Source of the DNA: a virus | Reading direction: 5' to 3' (one strand) | IMG/VR virus record: IMGVR_UViG_3300037010_004509 | Location: 1-22,357 of that record | Length of the DNA stretch: 22,357 bases | Shown: one piece after another, positions 1 through 9,599 of the stretch | Layout of the letters: every line of letters starts with the position of its first letter | Numbering within the stretch: the stretch's first letter is position 1 | The notes under the pieces: generated by a model | Seen by the model: the letters and a program-made list of their open reading frames with translations, nothing else | Database searches by the model: none | What the model was told of the DNA's origin: nothing | Translations under genes and position numbers: made by a program

Positions 1-1788
1 ATGCGGGGGTACGGGGTGAGTCCATCGGTCTATAGCTACTTGAGGTTTTCGGACCCCCGCCAGAGTGCTGGGCACAGCGCGGAACGGCAGTTGCAGTACG
101 CCGCGCGCTGGGCGGCTGAACGCGGCATGCAGCTCGACGCGGCGCTATCGATGCGGGACGAGGGATTGTCGGCCTACCACCAGCAGCACATCAAGTCTGG
201 GGCGTTGGGGCTGTTCCTGGCAGCGGTCGGCGAGGGCCGCATTGTGCCCGGCTCGGTGCTGATCGTCGAAGGACTGGACCGCTTGAGCCGCGCCGAGCCC
301 ATCCAGGCGCAGGCGCAGCTGGCACAGATCATCAACGCCGGCATCACCGTGGTGACGGCGAGCGACGGCAAGGAGTACACCCGCGAGGGGCTCAAGGCGA
401 CGCCGATGGACCTGGTCTACAGCCTGCTCGTGATGATCCGCGCACACGAAGAATCGGACACCAAGAGCAAGCGCGTCACGGCGGCGATCATCCGGCAGTG
501 CGAACAGTGGATTGCTGGTGCCTGGCGCGGGGTGATTCGCAACGGCAAAGACCCCGCGTGGCTGCGCTGGGACGGTACCGCCTGGATCGTGGACGAGGCG
601 CGTGCCGAGGCCGTTCGGGCCGCGCTCGACCTGTTCCGGGCCGGCCACGGCGCCGGGCGGATCGTGCAGCGGCTGGCCGCCGCAGGCTTGTCCACCACTG
701 GCCGCACGATGACGGCCAGCCACATCTACAAGCTGGTCCGCGCGCGCTGGCTGCGCGGCGAGAAAGAGATCGAGGTCGGCGGCGAGACCTACCGGCTGCC
801 AGGGTATTACCCGGCACTGCTCACGCCGGCCGAGTGGGATGAGCTGCAGCTGCTCGCCGACGATCGCGGCCGTCGGCGCGTGAAGGGCACGCTGCCGCAC
901 ATCATCACCGGCATCGGCATTGCACGCTGCGGCTACTGCGGACAGGCCATGGTCGGGCAGAACCTCGAAACCAAGCCGCGCCTGCCAGACGGCCGCATCC
1001 GCGACAGCTACCGGCGCCTGCTGTGCTGTGGCAAGGCGATCGGACAGCCGTGCACGGTGTCGGGCTCATGCTCGGTCGCGCCCATTGAGCATGCGTTGCT
1101 GACCTACTGCTCAGATCAGATGCGGCTCGACGCGCTGCGCGGCGACGCTGACCGCAGCGCCGCACCACGCGCACAGATCGCGCAGACGCGCCAACGCATT
1201 GCCGACCTGCAACGTCAGCTTGAGCGCATCACCACTGCGCTGGCCAGCGACGACGATGCGCCGCCGCTGGCGTTCCTGCGCCGAGCCCGCGACCTGGAAC
1301 GGGAGATCGCGGCCGAGCAGGTCCAACTGGAGACAGCCGAGCGCGAACTCGCTGGCGCGACCGGCCAGGCCCTGACGCACGACCAGGCGCAGCGCTGGGC
1401 GGCCCTGCGCGAGGCCGTCGCCGCCCAGGACTACGATGCCCGAGTGCAAGTGCGGCAGATGATCGCCCAGACGTTCGCAGCGATCATCGTCTATCACGCC
1501 GGGCGCGATGCCCAGCACCGGGGGCCAATCGACCTGGTGCTGCAAGCCAAGGGCGGCGCGCCGCGCTGGCTGCGCATCGACCGCATCACTGGCGAGATGC
1601 TCACGGGGATCGATCTGCACCGGCAAGCTGATGTGCAACCATCAGCTGCGGGCGCGGGATCCGCACCGGTAGGCGCCACGGGTCTGACGGCCGCCGATCT
1701 GGCGGATGCACCCGGCGCGGCGAGCGCACGGGCTGCTGAGTCGAGCAGCTCACCAACCACTGCGCGGCCACCTGTGACACCAGCGTGA
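1..1788 (+). CDS. Large serine recombinase (phage integrase)
   Basis: Site-specific DNA recombinase of the serine integrase/resolvase family, expected to integrate and excise the prophage through a covalent phosphoserine-DNA link. The N-terminal catalytic domain (about residues 8-160) has YLRFS with nucleophile Ser17 and Arg15, followed by the EGLDRLSR motif with Arg94 and Arg97. A recombinase DNA-binding domain follows (about 170-290). A zinc ribbon has Cys310, Cys313, Cys342/343 and Cys351. A coiled coil lies at about 390-455, and the tail is low-complexity and Ala/Ser rich. At 595 aa it falls within the range for large serine integrases. The window opens exactly on this ATG, so the start is not secure: GTG at 16 lies nearer the YSYLRFS motif, and upstream starts cannot be seen. 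It runs convergently towards the late operon, with only 33 bases between the stop codons. The family call is firm; the integrase role is inferred from context. Confidence 0.93.
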   Translation: MRGYGVSPSVYSYLRFSDPRQSAGHSAERQLQYAARWAAERGMQLDAALSMRDEGLSAYHQQHIKSGALGLFLAAVGEGRIVPGSVLIVEGLDRLSRAEPIQAQAQLAQIINAGITVVTASDGKEYTREGLKATPMDLVYSLLVMIRAHEESDTKSKRVTAAIIRQCEQWIAGAWRGVIRNGKDPAWLRWDGTAWIVDEARAEAVRAALDLFRAGHGAGRIVQRLAAAGLSTTGRTMTASHIYKLVRARWLRGEKEIEVGGETYRLPGYYPALLTPAEWDELQLLADDRGRRRVKGTLPHIITGIGIARCGYCGQAMVGQNLETKPRLPDGRIRDSYRRLLCCGKAIGQPCTVSGSCSVAPIEHALLTYCSDQMRLDALRGDADRSAAPRAQIAQTRQRIADLQRQLERITTALASDDDAPPLAFLRRARDLEREIAAEQVQLETAERELAGATGQALTHDQAQRWAALREAVAAQDYDARVQVRQMIAQTFAAIIVYHAGRDAQHRGPIDLVLQAKGGAPRWLRIDRITGEMLTGIDLHRQADVQPSAAGAGSAPVGATGLTAADLADAPGAASARAAESSSSPTTARPPVTPA

Positions 1789-1821
1789 CCAGCACCGCCA
1801 GCGCGATTTCGCGGCGCCGCA
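1789..1821. other. Convergent junction between recombinase and late operon
   Basis: A 33-base gap separates the two convergent stop codons. It contains a small GC-rich palindrome (CGCG ATTT CGCG, about 1803-1814) but no T-run on either strand, so a classical intrinsic terminator is not supported. No attachment-site repeat can be recognised here. Confidence 0.4.
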
Positions 1822-2109
1822 TCACGGATCGGCGCGTTCGGTCAGGGTCGGCACGTCGCTGATCACGGTGTCGGCCCACGGCAGTTCGGCCGGCTTCTTT
1901 GGCCGGCGCGCCGCCCGGCCGCGCTTCGCGGCGCGCTGGTCATCGATGGCCATGCCCATGACGTTGACGGCCTCGGCCGGCAGTGTCATCACGACCTGGC
2001 CGCCGCGCAGGATGGCTGCGTCCCCAGTGCGCACGCCGATGGCAACGTCTACCGGATCCGGTTCGCGCCGCTTCGCCGGGCCGAACCATGACTTGAGCAT
2101 CTCGATCAT
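1822..2109 (-). CDS. Hypothetical 95-aa basic phage protein
   Basis: Last gene of the minus-strand late operon. I do not recognise the family. The protein has an N-terminal amphipathic stretch (MIEMLKSWFG), a central segment around residues 22-55 that could form small beta strands (RTGDAAILRG and following), a very basic Arg/Lys patch at about 58-72, and an acidic C-terminus. No signal peptide or convincing membrane helix is visible. Its ATG overlaps the stop of the preceding gene as ATGA, which supports both the start and coupled translation. Upstream there is only a weak GGAAA. Its position after holin-like genes might suggest a lysis or accessory role, but nothing in the protein itself supports that. 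Confidence 0.7.
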   Translation of the reverse strand: MIEMLKSWFGPAKRREPDPVDVAIGVRTGDAAILRGGQVVMTLPAEAVNVMGMAIDDQRAAKRGRAARRPKKPAELPWADTVISDVPTLTERADP

Positions 2110-2297
2110 CTTGTTTCCAGGCTGTCTTCAGCGCGATCTTCGCCATCCAGGCCGTCAAAGTAGCCGCGCATGTAGGCAGCGGTGATGTCGTCGGGCTTGC
2201 GCAAGGCGGCATTCCGGCGCACGTAGGCCCAGAGCGCCCAGGCGGCCGCGCCAACAGCGGCCGACAGCAAGTTCGTGAGGACATCTGCAGCAGTCAC
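2106..2297 (-). CDS. Small single-pass membrane protein, GTG start
   Basis: A 63-aa protein starting at GTG 2297. The start is supported by a strong Shine-Dalgarno (GGAGG, 7 bases upstream) and by a GTGA overlap with the stop of the preceding membrane protein. Residues 5-27 form one hydrophobic helix (ending AAAWALWAYV) followed by a positively charged RRNAALRK, as expected for an N-out/C-in or tail-anchored topology. The C-terminus is acidic (DGLDGEDRAEDSLE). It belongs to a run of small membrane proteins next to the holin-like gene, so a lysis-accessory role (antiholin or lysis regulator) is possible but unproven. A longer reading of this frame, upstream to 2606, overlaps the better-supported membrane gene and is not used. 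Confidence 0.7.
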   Translation of the reverse strand: MTAADVLTNLLSAAVGAAAWALWAYVRRNAALRKPDDITAAYMRGYFDGLDGEDRAEDSLETR

Positions 2298-2635
2298 GTC
2301 TTGCCCTCCGCAGCACCATCCAGCGGCGTCCACCCCGACATGACGCGGGCGGCATCGCGTGCCTGCGGCTGGCGGTAGATCCGCCAGGCCAGGCCGATCA
2401 CGGTCGCGAGCAAGCCAGCGCAGCAGATCGCCATGGCGCGCAGCAGCGCATCGACACCAGGTAAGGGCTCCAGCAGCGGGATCTGCACGGCCAGGCTGAA
2501 CAGCCCCAGCGCAAGCATGATCAGGCCGCACTTGATGATGAGCCCCTCGTGGATGTGCGGCGTCACCACGATCCAGGCCACTGCGCACATCAGCACGACC
2601 ACGCACAGCGTGACGAAGGCGACAACGTAATCCAT
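2294..2635 (-). CDS. Three-helix membrane protein, holin-like or lysis accessory
   Basis: A 113-aa integral membrane protein with three hydrophobic segments at about residues 4-26, 32-53 and 65-88, and a polar C-terminal tail. ATG 2635 is chosen because AAGGGGAG sits 6 bases upstream and the ATG follows the previous stop by two bases (TGACCATG). A TTG two codons earlier (2641) would lack a spaced Shine-Dalgarno. It lies directly after the holin-like gene. Two adjacent membrane proteins of this size at the end of a tail operon often form a holin/antiholin pair, but no family-specific motif is recognised here. The identity remains open. Confidence 0.7.
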   Translation of the reverse strand: MDYVVAFVTLCVVVLMCAVAWIVVTPHIHEGLIIKCGLIMLALGLFSLAVQIPLLEPLPGVDALLRAMAICCAGLLATVIGLAWRIYRQPQARDAARVMSGWTPLDGAAEGKT

Positions 2636-2637
2636 GG

Positions 2638-2952
2638 TCAACTCCCCTTGCGCAGCCAGCCGCCGAGGATCTCGGCCAGCTTGATTTCCCGCACGACCTG
2701 CACCACCGAGCCGGCCAGCGAGATACCCAGGAACCCCAGCATGAATGCCAGGCCCATCTTGGCGTTGTCGCCGTGCAGATTCAGCGCATCGGCCGCGCTC
2801 GGGCCGACGTAGCTGGCAATGGCCGTGCCCGAGGCCACATTGACCGCACGCTCTGCCCAGGTGAGCCCGGGTGCGAATCGCAGGCTGATCAGCGCACCCA
2901 CCAGGCCTGCACCGGGGGCACTGCGGGCCAGCGTCTGTAGATCGATGTCCAT
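2638..2952 (-). CDS. Putative phage holin (3-TM type)
   Basis: A 104-aa protein. The opening MDIDLQTLARSAPGAG, followed by SLRFAPGLTWAERAVN, resembles a group of roughly 100-aa proteobacterial phage proteins annotated as putative three-helix holins. Hydrophobic stretches lie at about residues 13-25, 36-52 and 66-88, with a charged C-terminus (REIKLAEILGGWLRKGS). Holins open the inner membrane at the end of the lytic cycle so that the endolysin or spanins can act. The ATG at 2952 is one base past the previous stop (TGAGATG). The reading frame is open further upstream to 3150, but that extension overlaps the preceding gene and looks non-coding. The holin call is inferred from size, topology and position, since no endolysin is seen nearby. 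Confidence 0.68.
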   Translation of the reverse strand: MDIDLQTLARSAPGAGLVGALISLRFAPGLTWAERAVNVASGTAIASYVGPSAADALNLHGDNAKMGLAFMLGFLGISLAGSVVQVVREIKLAEILGGWLRKGS

Positions 2953-2953
2953 C

Positions 2954-3289
2954 TCACACCGCCACAGCACCAGCCCAGCGCGAGGCTTGTGCCGTGCTAC
3001 CAGAGACAACGATTTCAGGGCCAGCCTGGTCGGATGGCCCGGCAGGCACAGCACTGAGCTGCATGTAGGCCCATGCGAGCGCGTTCGCGCTGTCGGGCGG
3101 GGCGCCGTTGACCTGCACCTGATCGATGGACAGGTGCGTGCGCCCGGCACGCCGTGTGGCCTCGCTCACATAACCCCGCACGATGACGACGCAGATCTGT
3201 GAAATCAAATCAATCGTCAGCGCGGTGATGCGGTGGTAATTGATGGCGGCACCAGTTGCCGGGTCTTCGATTGCGATTTTCAGGGCCAT
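2954..3289 (-). CDS. Small conserved-type phage protein downstream of the tail tip genes
   Basis: A 111-aa soluble protein beginning MALKIAIEDPATGAAINYH, a pattern I associate with small uncharacterised phage proteins encoded just after tail tip or fibre genes. The predicted content is mostly beta: alternating hydrophobic strands at about residues 21-42 and 50-60. The Shine-Dalgarno AAGGAA lies 6 bases before the ATG. The C-terminus is Ala/Ser/Gly rich. It sits between the lipoprotein gene (19-base gap) and the holin-like gene. It may be a minor tail or tail-assembly component; the sequence does not show a specific function. Confidence 0.7.
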   Translation of the reverse strand: MALKIAIEDPATGAAINYHRITALTIDLISQICVVIVRGYVSEATRRAGRTHLSIDQVQVNGAPPDSANALAWAYMQLSAVPAGPSDQAGPEIVVSGSTAQASRWAGAVAV

Positions 3290-3308: not shown

Positions 3309-4076
3309 TCAGAGATTGGTCACATCGACCAGAAACAGTTTTCCGCCCATGGGCTGTAAATAACCATCTGGAATTGCAGACGGCGGTATTTGCTTGAACA
3401 CGATCGACTGCGTGACCGCGCCGACATTACTTGTCTTGACGCCATCTCCAAGCATCCAATCCGGCTGTCCGCCATAGGTCGCGTACACCCGTGCAAATGA
3501 CAAGCACGCCGCATAGTCACCGGCCGGGGCGGTGATCGACCCAGGCGGCGGCGGGTAAACGCCTTGTTGTGCGTTCGGGAGGTCGGTGATGCCGACGATG
3601 CGCATGGGCGGGTTCGTCGAGTCGAACGTCAGCACGCCCGCGCTGGTGTAGACCTGCAGCCCTGCGCCAGACGACCCGGCCGGCGGTGCGCGCATCTTGT
3701 CGAACACGTACCAGTCGATGGTCCCCGCCGCGCTGGCGAGCCGGTACGTGACCGTGCTGCCAGATCGCGTGGCGCCGACCAGCATCACGGCCATGTTCGG
3801 CGACTTGATGCACAGCAGCGGCGTGTCCACGTCGGTCACGACCAGGTCGGACAGACCGGTCAATGCCGCCTGCCCTCGATGTCGCAAACCCATGTTCGTA
3901 TAGTTTTCGTCGATCTGGATTACTCCGTGATCTCCAATGACCTGGAAGCCAGCCGGCATATTCACGTACTCGTTTGATTTTTCCAATTGCGGATTATCCA
4001 CATATTCAGAACCGCCGCCACCACACCCGCTAATAAATACCAAACAGAATAAAGCCAGGAACATTGCCAGACGCAT
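3309..4076 (-). CDS. Phage-encoded lipoprotein with tail-tip-accessory-like body
   Basis: A 255-aa protein with a type II signal peptide: basic start MRLAM, a hydrophobic core through residue 15, and lipobox ISGC with lipidated Cys18. It is followed by a GGGGS linker, and the +2 residue is Gly, which by the Lol rule favours the outer membrane. From Met40 (MPAGFQVIGDHGVIQID) the body resembles small proteins encoded just after J-like genes, where translation would normally begin. A second AGLQVY motif at residue 138 suggests an internal duplication. The start is supported by GGAG, 8 bases upstream of ATG 4076. The gene overlaps the preceding one by 47 bases in another frame. GC over 3901-4080 is about 46%, against about 68% at 3661-3720 in the same gene. 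Possible roles include lysogenic conversion or superinfection exclusion, or a virion-associated lipoprotein. The signal peptide is clear; the function is inferred. Confidence 0.85.
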   Translation of the reverse strand: MRLAMFLALFCLVFISGCGGGGSEYVDNPQLEKSNEYVNMPAGFQVIGDHGVIQIDENYTNMGLRHRGQAALTGLSDLVVTDVDTPLLCIKSPNMAVMLVGATRSGSTVTYRLASAAGTIDWYVFDKMRAPPAGSSGAGLQVYTSAGVLTFDSTNPPMRIVGITDLPNAQQGVYPPPPGSITAPAGDYAACLSFARVYATYGGQPDWMLGDGVKTSNVGAVTQSIVFKQIPPSAIPDGYLQPMGGKLFLVDVTNL

Positions 4077-4311
4077 TTGAGTAACTCCAAGAGAGGGTGT
4101 TGCCAGAGATTGAGATTGCAGGCCACCGGTTACCGGATGACGAGTAATCGGGGAAGAAAGCGAAATACGGCTGATTGCCGGGAAGGCCGTCGTGCGTTGT
4201 GGACCCGGACTGCGCACCCGTGTCCACAACGCCGAGCACGCGGGCGAGCCGATCGGTTGCGGCGAACGTCAGGCGCCCCTGCGCGTCGAAGCACTGCAGC
4301 CCGGCAGCCAT
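4030..4311 (-). CDS. Small tail tip accessory protein
   Basis: A 93-aa protein beginning MAAGLQCFDAQGRLTF and ending in a beta-rich segment (SISGNTLSWSYS ... ILFGIY). Small proteins with this kind of opening and close are common directly after J-like tip genes in siphoviruses, but their role is unknown. ATG 4311 overlaps the tip protein stop (TGATG), with GGGGA 7 bases upstream; the in-frame GTG at 4314 is an alternative. Its first 29 residues match residues 138-166 of the following lipoprotein at 12 positions by my hand alignment, so the two genes appear paralogous. It may fold as a small beta-sandwich on the tail tip. Confidence 0.78.
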   Translation of the reverse strand: MAAGLQCFDAQGRLTFAATDRLARVLGVVDTGAQSGSTTHDGLPGNQPYFAFFPDYSSSGNRWPAISISGNTLSWSYSNASGNVPGFILFGIY

Positions 4312-7300
4312 CACCAGATCCCCAGGCGGACACGCATCACACCGTTGCTGTCGTAGACCCGCATCTGCTGGTTGTCCAGCTCGGTGCGCTGGCCAGACGC
4401 CGCGCTGCGGATCGTGGTCGTGCCATCAGCGGCCACGATGAAGCGGTTGTTGATGTTGAGCGAGCCGGCCGTGATGGCGCCGAGGTTGGCCGAGATGGCC
4501 GAGAGCTGCGTCACACTGATCTTGTCCGCAGTGAGCGTGCCGGTCTTGATGACCCCGCCACTGATCTGCGTGCCAAGGCCGGTCGGTACCCAGGGTGACG
4601 GCGCGGACTGCGCTGCCGACAGTGCAGGCGCGCCCATCGGGCACACCACAAACATCCAGGAATCAGCCTGCCCCGCCAGCGTCGCAAGCTTGCGGTATGT
4701 GAGCTGTGCCGTGACCGCACCAGCCGGCGCCGCAGCGACAGCGAACAGCCGCTTGTACCCGCTGAGCGCCTGACCACCGCCGGCCTCAGCGGCATTGGTG
4801 GGCAGCGCTGTAAAGGTGATTACGGCCCCAGCCACATCGCGCCAAGTCACGTAGCCGGTGACGCTGCAGCGCAGCGCGCCCGAGTAAAAGCTGAACTCGT
4901 ACGGCTGGCCGCCCACCACCGGCCATGTCGGCCCGGCCATGTCGGCATATGCGGTGCCATTGCCCGCCCCATCAACACCGGTTTGCCGCAGCGACAGCGT
5001 GTTGACGCCGGTCAGCTGCCAGGCGGTGCCTGCCAAATTCAGGCCGGATGTCAACACTCCGACCGGAATGACGGCGGCCGTTGAGAATGTGTGCCCGTCG
5101 GCTTGCAGCACCCCGCCGGCATCCAGGTAAGTCGCAGCGAAAGCACTGTTCGGGATCAAATTGCCGCCCGGCAGGCCCGAGCTGATATGTGCTGCCGTCA
5201 CGGCGCCAGCGGCGATCTTGTCGGTCGTGATGGCCCCAGCGCTGATCTTGTCAGCTGTGACGGCATTGGCGGTGATCTTGTCGGCTGTGACAGCACCCGC
5301 CAAAATCTTGCTGGAGATGATCGAGCCATCGACGATCAGATCAGACCCATATTTATCACGCGCACGCAAGCGGGTGAACCATATTTTGCCTGCTGTCATC
5401 GCCGGGACATAAATGTAGAGCCAGCACCGAATAGCTCCAGCAGGCGCTACGAATGACCCTGACAACTCACTCCATGACGTCCCAACCAATGCCGACAAGT
5501 TAATAACCATGATTTGGTTATTAACTGTGCCATCCGATTTCAGGTAAAAGGCAATCAGTTGTGATGTCGTTGTATTTGCAAAATCAGACGATTTAACGGC
5601 CCAAATCTTGACATCGTATTCCGTCCCTGCGCGAAGCTCAAACCCGTCGGCATTGGCTCCTACATCACTGTAGGCTTTTGCTGCCGCAAATACAGCCACG
5701 CTGCTACTACCACCACCCCAAGCAATTTGACATACATTTGTAGATGGCGCACCAGCCGGCACGCCGGCTGTTGATGCTGCAACGACGGACATCCACGTTG
5801 CGCCGGCAAATGGCCGCCAGTTCTTCAGGTCACCGCTCGCAAAATCCCCATTCGCAACAAGGTTTGTGCCGGTCACGAGCATCTTGTCGGTCGTGATAGC
5901 CCCGGCCGCAACTTCGGTTGCACTGATGGCTCCAGCAGCAATCTTGCCTGCGACGATCGAATTTGCCGCTAATTCCGAAGCCGTGATCGAACCAGCAGCA
6001 ATCTTGCCGGCTGTGATCGCACCAGCAGAAATTTCAGTAGCAGTAACAGCACCTGCCGCGATCTTGCCTGCTGTAACCGCCCCAGCCGACAACTCGTTTG
6101 CCGTCACTGCCCCGGCGGATAGTTTGGAAGTGGTAATGGATCCTGCAGCAATTTCGTTTGCACTGACAGCATTGGCGGCAATCTTTCCAGCAACCACCGC
6201 ACCTGCCGACAGTTTCGGGGTTGTGATGGCGTTATCGGATATCTCGGTCCCAGTGATGGTCCCAGGTAAGATTTCGTCAGGCTTCGGCGCATAAGCGGTA
6301 ATCATGTCGCCCTGTTCGACCTGGACGGCATCGACACGCAGCTGGGTGCCTGCGGCCGGCGTACCGGCCAGACCGATGGTCGGGCTGATGAAGCTGTTTG
6401 CGCTGGGTGTCACGGTGATCGACAGGCGCTGCCAGCTGTCCGAGGCGGCCACTACGATCGACTGGGCAAACGTGCCCATCTCGGCGCCACCGGTCGCTAC
6501 AGCGAACGTCTTGCAGCCAAGCAGCAGCGTCTGGCCCACATCAGCCTTAGCCCAGGCGCTGATGACGTATGTCGAGCCAGCGGTGATCGGTGGCCGGTTG
6601 CCCTGCAGGCTGATGCATGGGTTAGCAATGCTGCCGATAGCCAGTACGCGCTGCGATCTGGCGCCGTGCTTTGAGTCAGTGTCGATCGTCGGCGTACCGA
6701 ACCCGAGATAGTTGCCCCAGTTGTCCGCCCAGCCGTCGGTGTTTGAATCGACCTCAAACGAGCTGTTGGGGATCAGGTTGCCCCCCCCGATACTCACCGC
6801 CAGCTGAGAGGCCGTCAGCGTGCCCGTAACCTTTGCGGCGGCCACAGCAGCAATCTGCACATCGGTGAGCTGCCCGGTCAAATCTCCTGCTGGCACGCTG
6901 GATACATAGGCAGTGCCGCTCCAGCGATACAGCTTGCCATGCCAGACCAGCGCTTCAGTGGTCTTGGTGGTCGGCAGGCTTGGCGCCGTGCTGATGCTGA
7001 CTGGCTCAAGACCAGCGGCAAACTTGGCTGTGGTCACCGCACCGTCGGCCAGCATCGTTGCGATCACCGACCCGACGTCCGGCACCATGCCGGCCACCGT
7101 GAACGTCAGCTCGCTGCTGTAGGCCAGGGCGTCCTTGCCGAAGGCGTCATAGCCGGCCGCCTTGAGGTAGTACGTCGTGCCAGCAGCCAGCGCGGTACCG
7201 TTGGCGAGCTTGTTGATGGTGGTGAAGACGTCAGGCCCGTCATAGACCAGGTTGGCCGCCGTGGTGGCTACCGGCAAGGTCGTGGACACCCAGACCTGGA

Positions 7301-9599
7301 TACCTGCAAAGTCCAGATCGGCAGGCTGGGTGCACTGGAACGCGGCCTGCTTTGCCATCGGCGTGATGCTGAGCCCGGCAAGCGCACTGATCTGCGGATT
7401 GCTGGCGGTGATCTGGCTCCACGGCCCTTTGCGGCCAGTCACGGCCACTGGGCGCACGCGCAGGGCGATCGAGCGCCAGGGGCCGCCGTCGGCACGTGCG
7501 TCGTCGGCCGAGTAGGTCCACTGGCCCGAGGTCACGTTGCTGACGCTGCGCACTGTGGCCAGCGGCGCGCCGGCCAGCGCCTCGACGTCGTAGCTGGTGG
7601 CGCCATCGACCAGATCCCACTTGATCTGCGCTTCACCGCCGACCCAGGGCTTGAGCAGTGCGAGGTTCTGCACGCCGGCCAGCGGCGCGCCGGTGATCAG
7701 GTAGGTGTAGGCCGGCACGTCGGCCAGCGACTGCTGCCCGGCCCCGAAGATGTTGCGCGCGGTGAACTTGACGTAGATGGTGCGCCCGACCCACTGCTTG
7801 TCGTACGGGTAGCGCAGCACCGCGTCGTCAAGCCGGGTGAACAGCGAGCCGGCAGCATGCGCCGTGATGTCGGTGCCGTGCGCACCGCGCACCAGGTACT
7901 GGAGGTTGTAGGTGTTCACGCCGGTCAGCGTGGCGTCACGGTAGGCCAGCAGCTCGCCGCCTGCGTAGCACAGGGTGCTGAGGTCAGTGGCGTCTTGCAT
8001 GGTGCCGGCCAGCAGCACGCCCCCGGACACGCCCAGCGACACGGCCAGGGTGCTGACGGTGTCAATGACACCGCCCACGGGCAGCGTGGCCGTCAGCGCC
8101 CCGTGGCGAGCCTTGGCGGTGACCTCGGCCACGCGCTGGTAGGTGCTGCCATCAGTGCTGACGTGCATCTCGGCACCACCCCACAGCGGGCCGCCCGAGG
8201 TGGCAATCCACACCTCGGGCGTGCCACCCGTCAGGCTCAGCGGCGGCTCGAACATGACGGGCGCGGCGACGTTGCCGGGCGACTGGTTGTAGTCCACCCC
8301 GCCGCCGGCAGGCGACTGCGGCGTGATCTGCACCACCTGCTGCGAGCCGAGCGGACAGTCTTCAGCCTCGACGCGCAGATCGCCTTCATCACCCTCCTCG
8401 ATCGAGGTGATGCGCACGGTGTACTGGGCCATGCCGTCCGGGGCATAGGTCAGCGCAACGATGTCCATCGGCTCCAGGCGGTCCCAGCGCAGCGAGAGCC
8501 GGAATTCGTAGGTAGTACGCACGGCGCCCGCGCGGTCGCGCCGGAAGTCGGCCAGCTTCTGCGCGACATGGCCGACGCAGATCTCGGCAAACTCGTCTGG
8601 CTCGGCCGACAGCACCCCAAAGCGTTCGATGCTGCCCAGATCCTTGCTTTCGACCGTGGCGGCGTTGTATTCGTTGCTCCGGTCGCTGTACTTGATCTGG
8701 AAGTGGTTCTTGGCGTCGGCGGCGCCCTTGCGCTTGATCTTGATGGGCGGGCCGTCGCCGTCGGGCAGCAGGTCGTCCGCAGTCAGCTCCGGGATCGAGG
8801 CGACGGCAGGCGTGTAGGTCGCGCCGTTGCCGGTGGCGGCCGTGTCGGAATACGGCACGAACTTCAGCGCGCCGTCGCTCCAGAACATGCCGCACTGCGC
8901 GATCTCGGCCAGGCGTACCAGCGCGTCCTTGGCAGCCTTCTGGTCATCGTAGGCCGGGCTGGCGAAGATGCTGTTCGCGGCGCAGAAGTTGGCCAGCTGG
9001 GCTAGGTCGCCGAGCTTGGAGGCAAGCAGGCCGACGCCGTCGAGCTTGTCGGTCAGCAGCGCCGTGATGACGTTCTCGATCCGCGCGTCGGGAATGGTGT
9101 CGCTGACGCGGGTGGCCGACTTGATCTCGAAGGTGTGGCGATCGACGCTGCCGCCCGAGCCGAGATCCATCGACGCCTTGGCGGCATACGCCAGCCCCCG
9201 GTACGGCAGCGCGGTGGCAGCGTGGTTGGTGGCCCAATGCGGATGGGCGGTCTGGACGTCGGTGCCGGTGTAGAGGTCGAGTCCGAGCGAGGTGGTGGTG
9301 TGCTTTTTCTTGTCGGCCCAGATGGTGCCGACGCCGCTGATCGGGCCACGGCAGATCGCCAGGATCACGGCGGCCTTGTATTCGTAGCTGGTCGATTCGC
9401 CACCGCCGCCCTTGCCGCCCTGCTTCTGCTTTTTCTCGATCGCCTGGAAGTCGTCCCACTGGATGACGTTGGGCGCCACCCGGTTGGTGCCAAACACCCA
9501 GGGAATGCAGCGGCCGAGCACGGTCGTCTGCACTTTCATGCCGCTGAGCTTGGTCTGCCCGGTGTCGGCTTGGCTGTTGCGTCCTGCGAATCCGCTCAT
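4311..9599 (-). CDS. Tail tip / host specificity protein (gpJ-like), with modular receptor-binding region
   Basis: A 1762-aa central tip protein, which would sit at the distal tail end, bind the host surface and trigger DNA ejection. The N-terminal half has the tip-J pattern (early CIPWVFGTNRVAPN, the later QYTVRITSIEEGDEGD region up to about residue 420). About 640-840 contains two fibronectin-III-like repeats. The C-terminal third has three modules that open NLIPNSSFE (941), NLVANGDFA (1246) and NLIPNSAFA (1480), like jelly-roll carbohydrate-binding folds. They are separated by 10-residue repeats at 1120-1239 and 1432-1471. The C-terminal about 60 residues (from SLNINNRFIVAADG) resemble a conserved tip end. 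The start ATG overlaps the NlpC/P60 stop (ATGA). A G8 tract precedes module 1. Module 2 has about 49% GC, unlike the roughly 70% of the N-terminal part. The family call is strong; the carbohydrate-binding role is inferred from the look of the modules. Confidence 0.92.
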   Translation of the reverse strand: MSGFAGRNSQADTGQTKLSGMKVQTTVLGRCIPWVFGTNRVAPNVIQWDDFQAIEKKQKQGGKGGGGESTSYEYKAAVILAICRGPISGVGTIWADKKKHTTTSLGLDLYTGTDVQTAHPHWATNHAATALPYRGLAYAAKASMDLGSGGSVDRHTFEIKSATRVSDTIPDARIENVITALLTDKLDGVGLLASKLGDLAQLANFCAANSIFASPAYDDQKAAKDALVRLAEIAQCGMFWSDGALKFVPYSDTAATGNGATYTPAVASIPELTADDLLPDGDGPPIKIKRKGAADAKNHFQIKYSDRSNEYNAATVESKDLGSIERFGVLSAEPDEFAEICVGHVAQKLADFRRDRAGAVRTTYEFRLSLRWDRLEPMDIVALTYAPDGMAQYTVRITSIEEGDEGDLRVEAEDCPLGSQQVVQITPQSPAGGGVDYNQSPGNVAAPVMFEPPLSLTGGTPEVWIATSGGPLWGGAEMHVSTDGSTYQRVAEVTAKARHGALTATLPVGGVIDTVSTLAVSLGVSGGVLLAGTMQDATDLSTLCYAGGELLAYRDATLTGVNTYNLQYLVRGAHGTDITAHAAGSLFTRLDDAVLRYPYDKQWVGRTIYVKFTARNIFGAGQQSLADVPAYTYLITGAPLAGVQNLALLKPWVGGEAQIKWDLVDGATSYDVEALAGAPLATVRSVSNVTSGQWTYSADDARADGGPWRSIALRVRPVAVTGRKGPWSQITASNPQISALAGLSITPMAKQAAFQCTQPADLDFAGIQVWVSTTLPVATTAANLVYDGPDVFTTINKLANGTALAAGTTYYLKAAGYDAFGKDALAYSSELTFTVAGMVPDVGSVIATMLADGAVTTAKFAAGLEPVSISTAPSLPTTKTTEALVWHGKLYRWSGTAYVSSVPAGDLTGQLTDVQIAAVAAAKVTGTLTASQLAVSIGGGNLIPNSSFEVDSNTDGWADNWGNYLGFGTPTIDTDSKHGARSQRVLAIGSIANPCISLQGNRPPITAGSTYVISAWAKADVGQTLLLGCKTFAVATGGAEMGTFAQSIVVAASDSWQRLSITVTPSANSFISPTIGLAGTPAAGTQLRVDAVQVEQGDMITAYAPKPDEILPGTITGTEISDNAITTPKLSAGAVVAGKIAANAVSANEIAAGSITTSKLSAGAVTANELSAGAVTAGKIAAGAVTATEISAGAITAGKIAAGSITASELAANSIVAGKIAAGAISATEVAAGAITTDKMLVTGTNLVANGDFASGDLKNWRPFAGATWMSVVAASTAGVPAGAPSTNVCQIAWGGGSSSVAVFAAAKAYSDVGANADGFELRAGTEYDVKIWAVKSSDFANTTTSQLIAFYLKSDGTVNNQIMVINLSALVGTSWSELSGSFVAPAGAIRCWLYIYVPAMTAGKIWFTRLRARDKYGSDLIVDGSIISSKILAGAVTADKITANAVTADKISAGAITTDKIAAGAVTAAHISSGLPGGNLIPNSAFAATYLDAGGVLQADGHTFSTAAVIPVGVLTSGLNLAGTAWQLTGVNTLSLRQTGVDGAGNGTAYADMAGPTWPVVGGQPYEFSFYSGALRCSVTGYVTWRDVAGAVITFTALPTNAAEAGGGQALSGYKRLFAVAAAPAGAVTAQLTYRKLATLAGQADSWMFVVCPMGAPALSAAQSAPSPWVPTGLGTQISGGVIKTGTLTADKISVTQLSAISANLGAITAGSLNINNRFIVAADGTTTIRSAASGQRTELDNQQMRVYDSNGVMRVRLGIW
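5187..5306 (-). repeat. Four further 10-residue repeats inside the tip protein
   Basis: Residues 1432-1471 are four units of the same decapeptide family (ILAGAVTADK, ITANAVTADK, ISAGAITTDK, IAAGAVTAAH). Here the last residue is Lys three times and then His, without the Lys/Glu alternation of the longer array. They join module 2 to module 3. Confidence 0.88.
5883..6242 (-). repeat. Twelve tandem 10-residue (30-bp) repeats inside the tip protein
   Basis: Residues 1120-1239 of the tip protein divide into twelve exact 10-residue units with consensus [IL]-[SA]-A-[GN]-[AS]-[VI]-x-[AT]-x-[KE], for example LSAGAVVAGK and IAAGAVTATE. From the second unit to the last, the final residue alternates strictly Lys, Glu, Lys, Glu. 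There is no indel between units. Such decapeptide arrays in phage fibres probably form an extended beta-helical or trimeric stalk. They join module 1 to module 2. Confidence 0.9.

What the first reader, a model, noticed from the sequence alone, without database searches (positions are those of the whole stretch)
3309..4076. Tail-tip-accessory protein turned into a lipoprotein
The protein body from Met40 reads like a normal start of the small proteins encoded after J-like genes, yet here 39 residues with a lipobox (ISGC18), GGGGS linker and their own Shine-Dalgarno precede it. The leader DNA (3901-4080) has about 46% GC against about 68% a few hundred bases later. This looks like a grafted lipoprotein leader that would place a tip-like domain on the host outer membrane. 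Such a protein could block superinfection by masking or mimicking the receptor partner of the phage's own tip. Alternatively it is a virion lipoprotein.
Basis: partly seen in the sequence, partly recalled or inferred. Interest (0 to 1): 0.72.

Follow-up and report, generated by a model that had tools for sequence, protein, structure and literature searches.

The report
Phage tip-gene neighbour made lipoprotein by overprinting
In a small group of temperate phages, a protein normally encoded right behind the tail-tip gene carries an added membrane-anchor leader, half of which is written in a second reading frame over the end of the preceding gene, so the protein is probably exported to the host's outer membrane, perhaps to block re-infection.

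Summary
The ORF at 4076-3309 (-) encodes a 255-aa protein with a type-II signal (MRLAMFLALFCLVFISGC18) and a good ribosome site. Homology to phage proteins (phrog_4062, unknown function) starts exactly at Met40. Sixteen relatives (13 named phages, 3 bacterial contigs) lack the leader; in nearly all the body starts at the stop of the preceding small gene. Leader-bearing relatives exist (91%, 91%, 58%, 30% identity), all with ISGCGGG. The leader is not simply an imported cassette. Its first 16 codons overprint the 3' end of the upstream 93-aa gene in the +1 frame, and that gene's Tyr-TAG end encodes the lipobox Ile-Ser. Codon choice there is T-ended (77% vs 19%); recoding tests are significant for three of four sequences (weaker for the fourth). 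The non-overlapping leader is under purifying selection (pN/pS 0.12). All leader forms share two extra cysteines (C89, C191) absent as a pair from 16 leaderless relatives, fitting an oxidising compartment. It is a real exported lipoprotein (about 0.85), most likely outer-membrane, and perhaps a superinfection-exclusion factor like T5 Llp (about 0.4; inferred). An internal start may also make a leaderless form. Virion location was not shown.

The parts
3309..4076 (-). lipoprotein gene, 255 aa (P0001)
   Evidence: homologues with the leader
4026..4076 (-). signal peptide, residues 1-17 (MRLAMFLALFCLVFISG), Cys18 codon at 4023-4025
   Evidence: consensus lipobox; ISGCGGG invariant in five sequences
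4030..4076 (-). overprinted stretch: 3' end and TAG stop of the 93-aa gene, read in +1 frame as residues 1-16 (incl. lipobox Ile-Ser) of the lipoprotein
4085..4088 (-). Shine-Dalgarno GGAG of the lipoprotein start
   Evidence: -5.9 kcal/mol
3960..4022 (-). linker, residues 19-39, extra DNA relative to leaderless phages
   Evidence: pN/pS 0.12 over residues 17-39
3957..3959 (-). Met40, ancestral start of the body; possible weak internal start
   Evidence: SD only -2.5 kcal/mol
3672..3959 (-). body module 1 (residues 40-135); Cys89 codon 3810-3812
   Evidence: profile match to the 93-aa family (91%, first 31 residues only); Cys
3312..3671 (-). body module 2 (residues 136-255), related to the 93-aa protein; Cys191 codon 3504-3506
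   Evidence: profile match 97%
4030..4311 (-). 93-aa gene (phrog_2427) whose end hosts the signal peptide
4311..9599 (-). J-like tail tip protein, 1762 aa
   Evidence: Phage-tail_3, phrog_1101 tail protein
2954..3289 (-). next gene, 111 aa (phrog_5084), conserved beside it

Best explanation
A two-module protein family encoded directly behind J (phrog_4062) has, in one group of temperate phages of Gram-negative hosts (one relative lies in a Sphaerotilus MAG), been turned into an exported lipoprotein. Shown by sequence: the N-terminal 39 codons were gained; the signal peptide is overprinted on the end of the preceding gene; the frame is under selection; a cysteine pair came with it. Inferred: Sec export, cleavage and lipidation at Cys18; Gly at +2 and +3 (no Asp at +2) sends it to the outer membrane; C89 and C191 form a disulphide. 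Further inferred: made late from the tail operon, it sits on the periplasmic face of the outer membrane and inactivates the phage's own receptor, excluding superinfection and protecting progeny from adsorbing to debris, as T5 Llp does. Some members may also make the leaderless form from an internal start.
For: Leaderless relatives start at Met40. Leader forms at 91/91/58/30% identity share ISGCGGG while the linker diverges. Same overlap and TAG stop in all intact leader forms, TGA/TAA in the leaderless ones checked. T-ended codons 0.77 vs 0.19. Recoding test P<5e-5 with window codon usage, <=0.0012 with AT-rich usage, for window, L001, L019. pN/pS 0.12 in the non-overlapping leader. C89/C191 in 5/5 leader forms, as a pair in 0/16 leaderless. 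Single origin not rejected. Position beside J and lipid anchor resemble T5 Llp, adjacent and downstream of pb5 (PMC9586334), and Rtp45 (PMC12685063).
Against: No functional data. Known exclusion lipoproteins are small (Rtp45 about 6 kDa), this one is about 25 kDa and has no detected similarity to them. Leader forms are rare. L023 gives weaker recoding statistics (0.0015 to 0.27 depending on the null). One leaderless phage (L016) has a cysteine at the second site and another close to the first. No promoter-like site was found nearby, so expression in the lysogen is doubtful. L003 has lost the lipoprotein start codon.
Confidence: 0.5

Rival explanations
1. Dual-start gene: the same ORF gives a cytoplasmic leaderless body, used as in other phages (probably in or on the virion), and an exported lipoprotein form with a separate role.
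For: A start codon persists at the body start in all leader forms (ATG, or GTG in L023); L023 has a very strong ribosome site there (-11.6 kcal/mol) and L019 a good one (-6.3). No second, leaderless copy was found in the window, L001, L019 or L023 records.
Against: In the window and its 91% relatives the internal site is weak (-2.5 to -4.2) and translational coupling to the upstream stop is lost. Records are fragments, so a second copy elsewhere is not excluded.
Confidence: 0.3
2. The leader is not translated; only the Met40 protein is made and the leader frame is a by-product of AT-rich intergenic DNA.
For: Low GC around the junction; relatives use Met40.
Against: pN/pS 0.12 in the leader frame, invariant ISGCGGG across 30% identity, T-ended codon choice significant even under AT-rich nulls for three sequences, weak ribosome site at Met40, linked cysteine pair.
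Confidence: 0.08
3. Surface or periplasmic lysogenic-conversion protein (adhesin, transporter modulator) unrelated to exclusion of its own phage.
For: Exported lipoprotein of a temperate phage (serine integrase at 1-1788); weak matches of relatives to PHROG families named membrane proteins of the moron class.
Against: Lies inside the late tail operon with no promoter or terminator signature of a moron.
Confidence: 0.15
4. Lysis protein (o-spanin-like).
For: Outer-membrane lipoprotein shortly before a holin-like gene (phrog_2359).
Against: Far too large, body belongs to phrog_4062, not nested with an i-spanin; another small Pro-rich lipoprotein-like ORF at 1601-1825 is a better candidate.
Confidence: 0.03

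Closest known systems
phrog_4062 proteins (e.g. BcepGomr gp24, Bcep176 gp60, KS9 gp21, phiL7 P23)
   Same: Body 40-255 is a member; same place behind J and the phrog_2427 gene
   Different: They start at the equivalent of Met40, have no signal peptide and lack the C89/C191 pair
T5 Llp and Cor superinfection-exclusion lipoproteins
   Same: Phage-encoded lipoprotein beside the receptor-binding gene; likely an intramolecular disulphide
   Different: Much larger, no sequence similarity detected in family searches, body is related to a J-adjacent family
Rtp45 of phage Rtp
   Same: Exclusion lipoprotein with a disulphide at the outer membrane
   Different: About 6 kDa against about 25 kDa; receptor here unknown
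Rz1 genes embedded in Rz (overlapping lipoprotein genes)
   Same: A lipoprotein signal encoded in an alternative frame of another gene
   Different: Only the signal peptide overlaps here; the rest is a separate conserved protein, not a spanin

Membership tests
phrog_4062 | Full-length profile match | tested here: met
   E 1.8e-28, residues 40-255 on 1-230/230
DUF6453 (PF20051) | Score above curated cut-off (25 bits) | tested here: not met
   16.1 bits, residues 93-171
Bacterial lipoprotein (type II signal) | n-region charge, hydrophobic core, lipobox, Cys at 15-35 | tested here: met
   Cys18 in window, L001, L019, L023; SignalP/LipoP not available
Bacterial lipoprotein (type II signal) | Lipidation and membrane location | not testable with these tools
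   needs labelling and fractionation
Llp/Cor superinfection-exclusion lipoproteins | Small lipoprotein related to Llp/Cor | tested here: not met
   255 aa; no such family among Pfam or PHROG hits
Llp/Cor superinfection-exclusion lipoproteins | Gene adjacent to the receptor-binding gene | tested here: inconclusive
   second gene after J; which protein binds the receptor is not known
Llp/Cor superinfection-exclusion lipoproteins | Blocks phage receptor | not testable with these tools
   needs adsorption assays
o-spanin (Rz1) | Small Pro-rich lipoprotein nested in or after an i-spanin gene | tested here: not met
   size, family and context

The most novel reading that the evidence does not exclude
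A J-adjacent protein has been re-addressed to the host outer membrane by overprinting a signal peptide on its neighbour's stop codon, with an internal start retained so that one gene supplies both a virion-side form and a membrane-anchored form that blocks the phage's own receptor.
Probability: 0.15. Interest if true: 0.82.

Novelty: new variant of a known kind. Interest (0 to 1): 0.56.

Why it matters
It is a clear, traceable case of a protein changing compartment by de novo overprinting of a signal peptide, with the ancestral leaderless state still visible in many phages. If the exclusion role holds, it shows how exclusion lipoproteins can be recruited from the phage's own tail module, and it supplies a receptor-blocking protein whose leaderless relatives could be compared directly.

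Tried and rejected
Solved-structure search by sequence: nothing significant. AlphaFold on five leader forms: mean pLDDT 54.8, usable only for about residues 61-130 and parts of 140-170; PDB fold search nothing; the viral library returned uncharacterised relatives such as phiL7 p23. No coordinates were available to measure the C89-C191 distance. Promoter and terminator scans empty. Profile scan of viral contigs with the broad alignment A2 failed for lack of conserved stretches. Genome searches in the host genus, family, order and class found the leader form only in the Sphaerotilus MAG. Plasmids: no match. Literature on virion content of phrog_4062 members: none found in the held library (hits not read). 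'Imported leader cassette' rejected because half of it overlaps the conserved end of the 93-aa gene.

Full report
What is there. The - strand ORF 4076-3309 encodes 255 aa. It lies second after the J-like gene (4311-9599): J, a 93-aa gene (4030-4311, phrog_2427), this gene, a 111-aa gene (phrog_5084), a holin-like gene (phrog_2359). The window is a 22.4-kb virus record with a lambda-type portal, capsid, tape measure, J and a serine integrase, so a temperate siphophage-like element is likely.

The body. Residues 40-255 match phrog_4062 over its full length, starting at profile position 1. tblastn hits in named phages of Xanthomonas, Burkholderia, Acinetobacter, Stenotrophomonas, Agrobacterium, Klebsiella and Pseudomonas nearly all begin at residues 37-42, with one at 31. 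In the records inspected the body homologue starts at or a few bases from the stop of the preceding small gene, most often a phrog_2427-type gene; in phage SYP it follows the tail gene directly. The body consists of two modules; profile comparison relates the 93-aa protein to module 2 (97%) and, over its first 31 residues, to module 1 (91%). So three related modules follow J. No virion evidence was found, so 'tip accessory' stays a positional guess.

The leader. It passes the lipoprotein consensus and has a GGAG ribosome site. Four relatives carry it: L001 (91%), L003 (Sphaerotilus MAG contig, 91%), L019 (58%), L023 (30%). ISGCGGG is invariant although the following linker is not alignable between distant members.

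Overprinting. Bases 4030-4076 are both the end of the 93-aa gene and codons 1-16 of the leader in the +1 frame. The Tyr codon and TAG stop of the 93-aa gene supply the lipobox Ile-Ser. The same arrangement is present in L001, L019 and L023; leaderless relatives end this gene with TGA or TAA and have no signal-like +1 frame. The 93-aa family is conserved to its C-terminus in leaderless phages, so its frame is the older one. Third-position T is 0.77 in its last 13 codons in the window against 0.19 before (L001 0.69/0.11, L019 0.77/0.32, L023 0.46/0.23). Random synonymous recoding with window codon usage never reached the observed hydropathy in 20,000 trials for window, L001 and L019; for L023 P = 0.0015. 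With codons drawn AT-rich, P = 0.0005-0.0012 for the first three and 0.07 for L023; with a T bias 0.006-0.02 and 0.27.

Selection. Residues 17-39, not overlapped, show pN/pS 0.12 between window and L001 (7 synonymous, 3 nonsynonymous changes) and 0.08 between L001 and L003; the overlapped codons show no synonymous changes in the lipoprotein frame. The counts are small but agree.

Export. All five leader forms have cysteines at 89 and 191, and apart from Cys18 (and Cys11 in the signal of three) no others. None of 16 leaderless relatives has the pair; L016 has Cys at 191 and one three residues after 89. This fits a disulphide formed outside the cytoplasm. It is a correlation over few lineages: four of the five leader forms are a supported clade, L023 is uncertain, and one clade of all five is not rejected (AU p 0.58).

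Internal start. Start codons persist at the body start; L023 has GTG with AAGGAGG (-11.6 kcal/mol), L019 -6.3, window -2.5. A second, leaderless product is likely in L023, possible in L019, doubtful in the window.

Function. T5 Llp lies adjacent and downstream of the receptor-binding pb5 gene and jams FhuA from the periplasm (PMC9586334); Rtp45 does the like for LptDE (PMC12685063). A lipoprotein gained within the J module of a temperate phage works most simply in that way, but size and sequence differ and nothing here tests receptor blocking. I give about 0.85 to 'exported lipoprotein', 0.4 to exclusion and 0.5 to the combined best account.

Noticed in passing
L003:1500-2700: A 16-nt deletion removes the lipoprotein start and fuses the 93-aa frame in frame to the leader and body; the upstream J frame also breaks near 1430-1474. 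Decay or assembly error.
   Followed up: partly
window 1601-1825 (-): Small lipoprotein-like ORF (MRRREIALAVLVTLVSQVAAQWLVSC...), Pro/Arg-rich, antisense to the 3' end of the integrase; possible o-spanin.
   Followed up: no
L003 about 5011-5304 (-), also in L001: Small lipoprotein (MNLFRHIASAAAALTLSAC...) that resembles BamE/SmpA from memory, in the relatives but not seen in the window.
   Followed up: no
window 1822-2952 (-): Holin-like gene and small ORFs but no recognisable endolysin in the record.
   Followed up: partly
window 5381-5690: Second low-GC dip (down to 43% in 180 bases), inside the J gene between repeated GAITADKI-type stretches.
   Followed up: no
L017 (OR464703.1): Record labelled Mycobacterium phage carries members of both J-adjacent families otherwise seen here in phages of Gram-negative hosts; label may be doubtful.
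   Followed up: no
L004:361-1113: Homing endonuclease annotated just behind J in Xanthomonas phage MK21, with a 'CRISPR' repeat annotated inside it.
   Followed up: no
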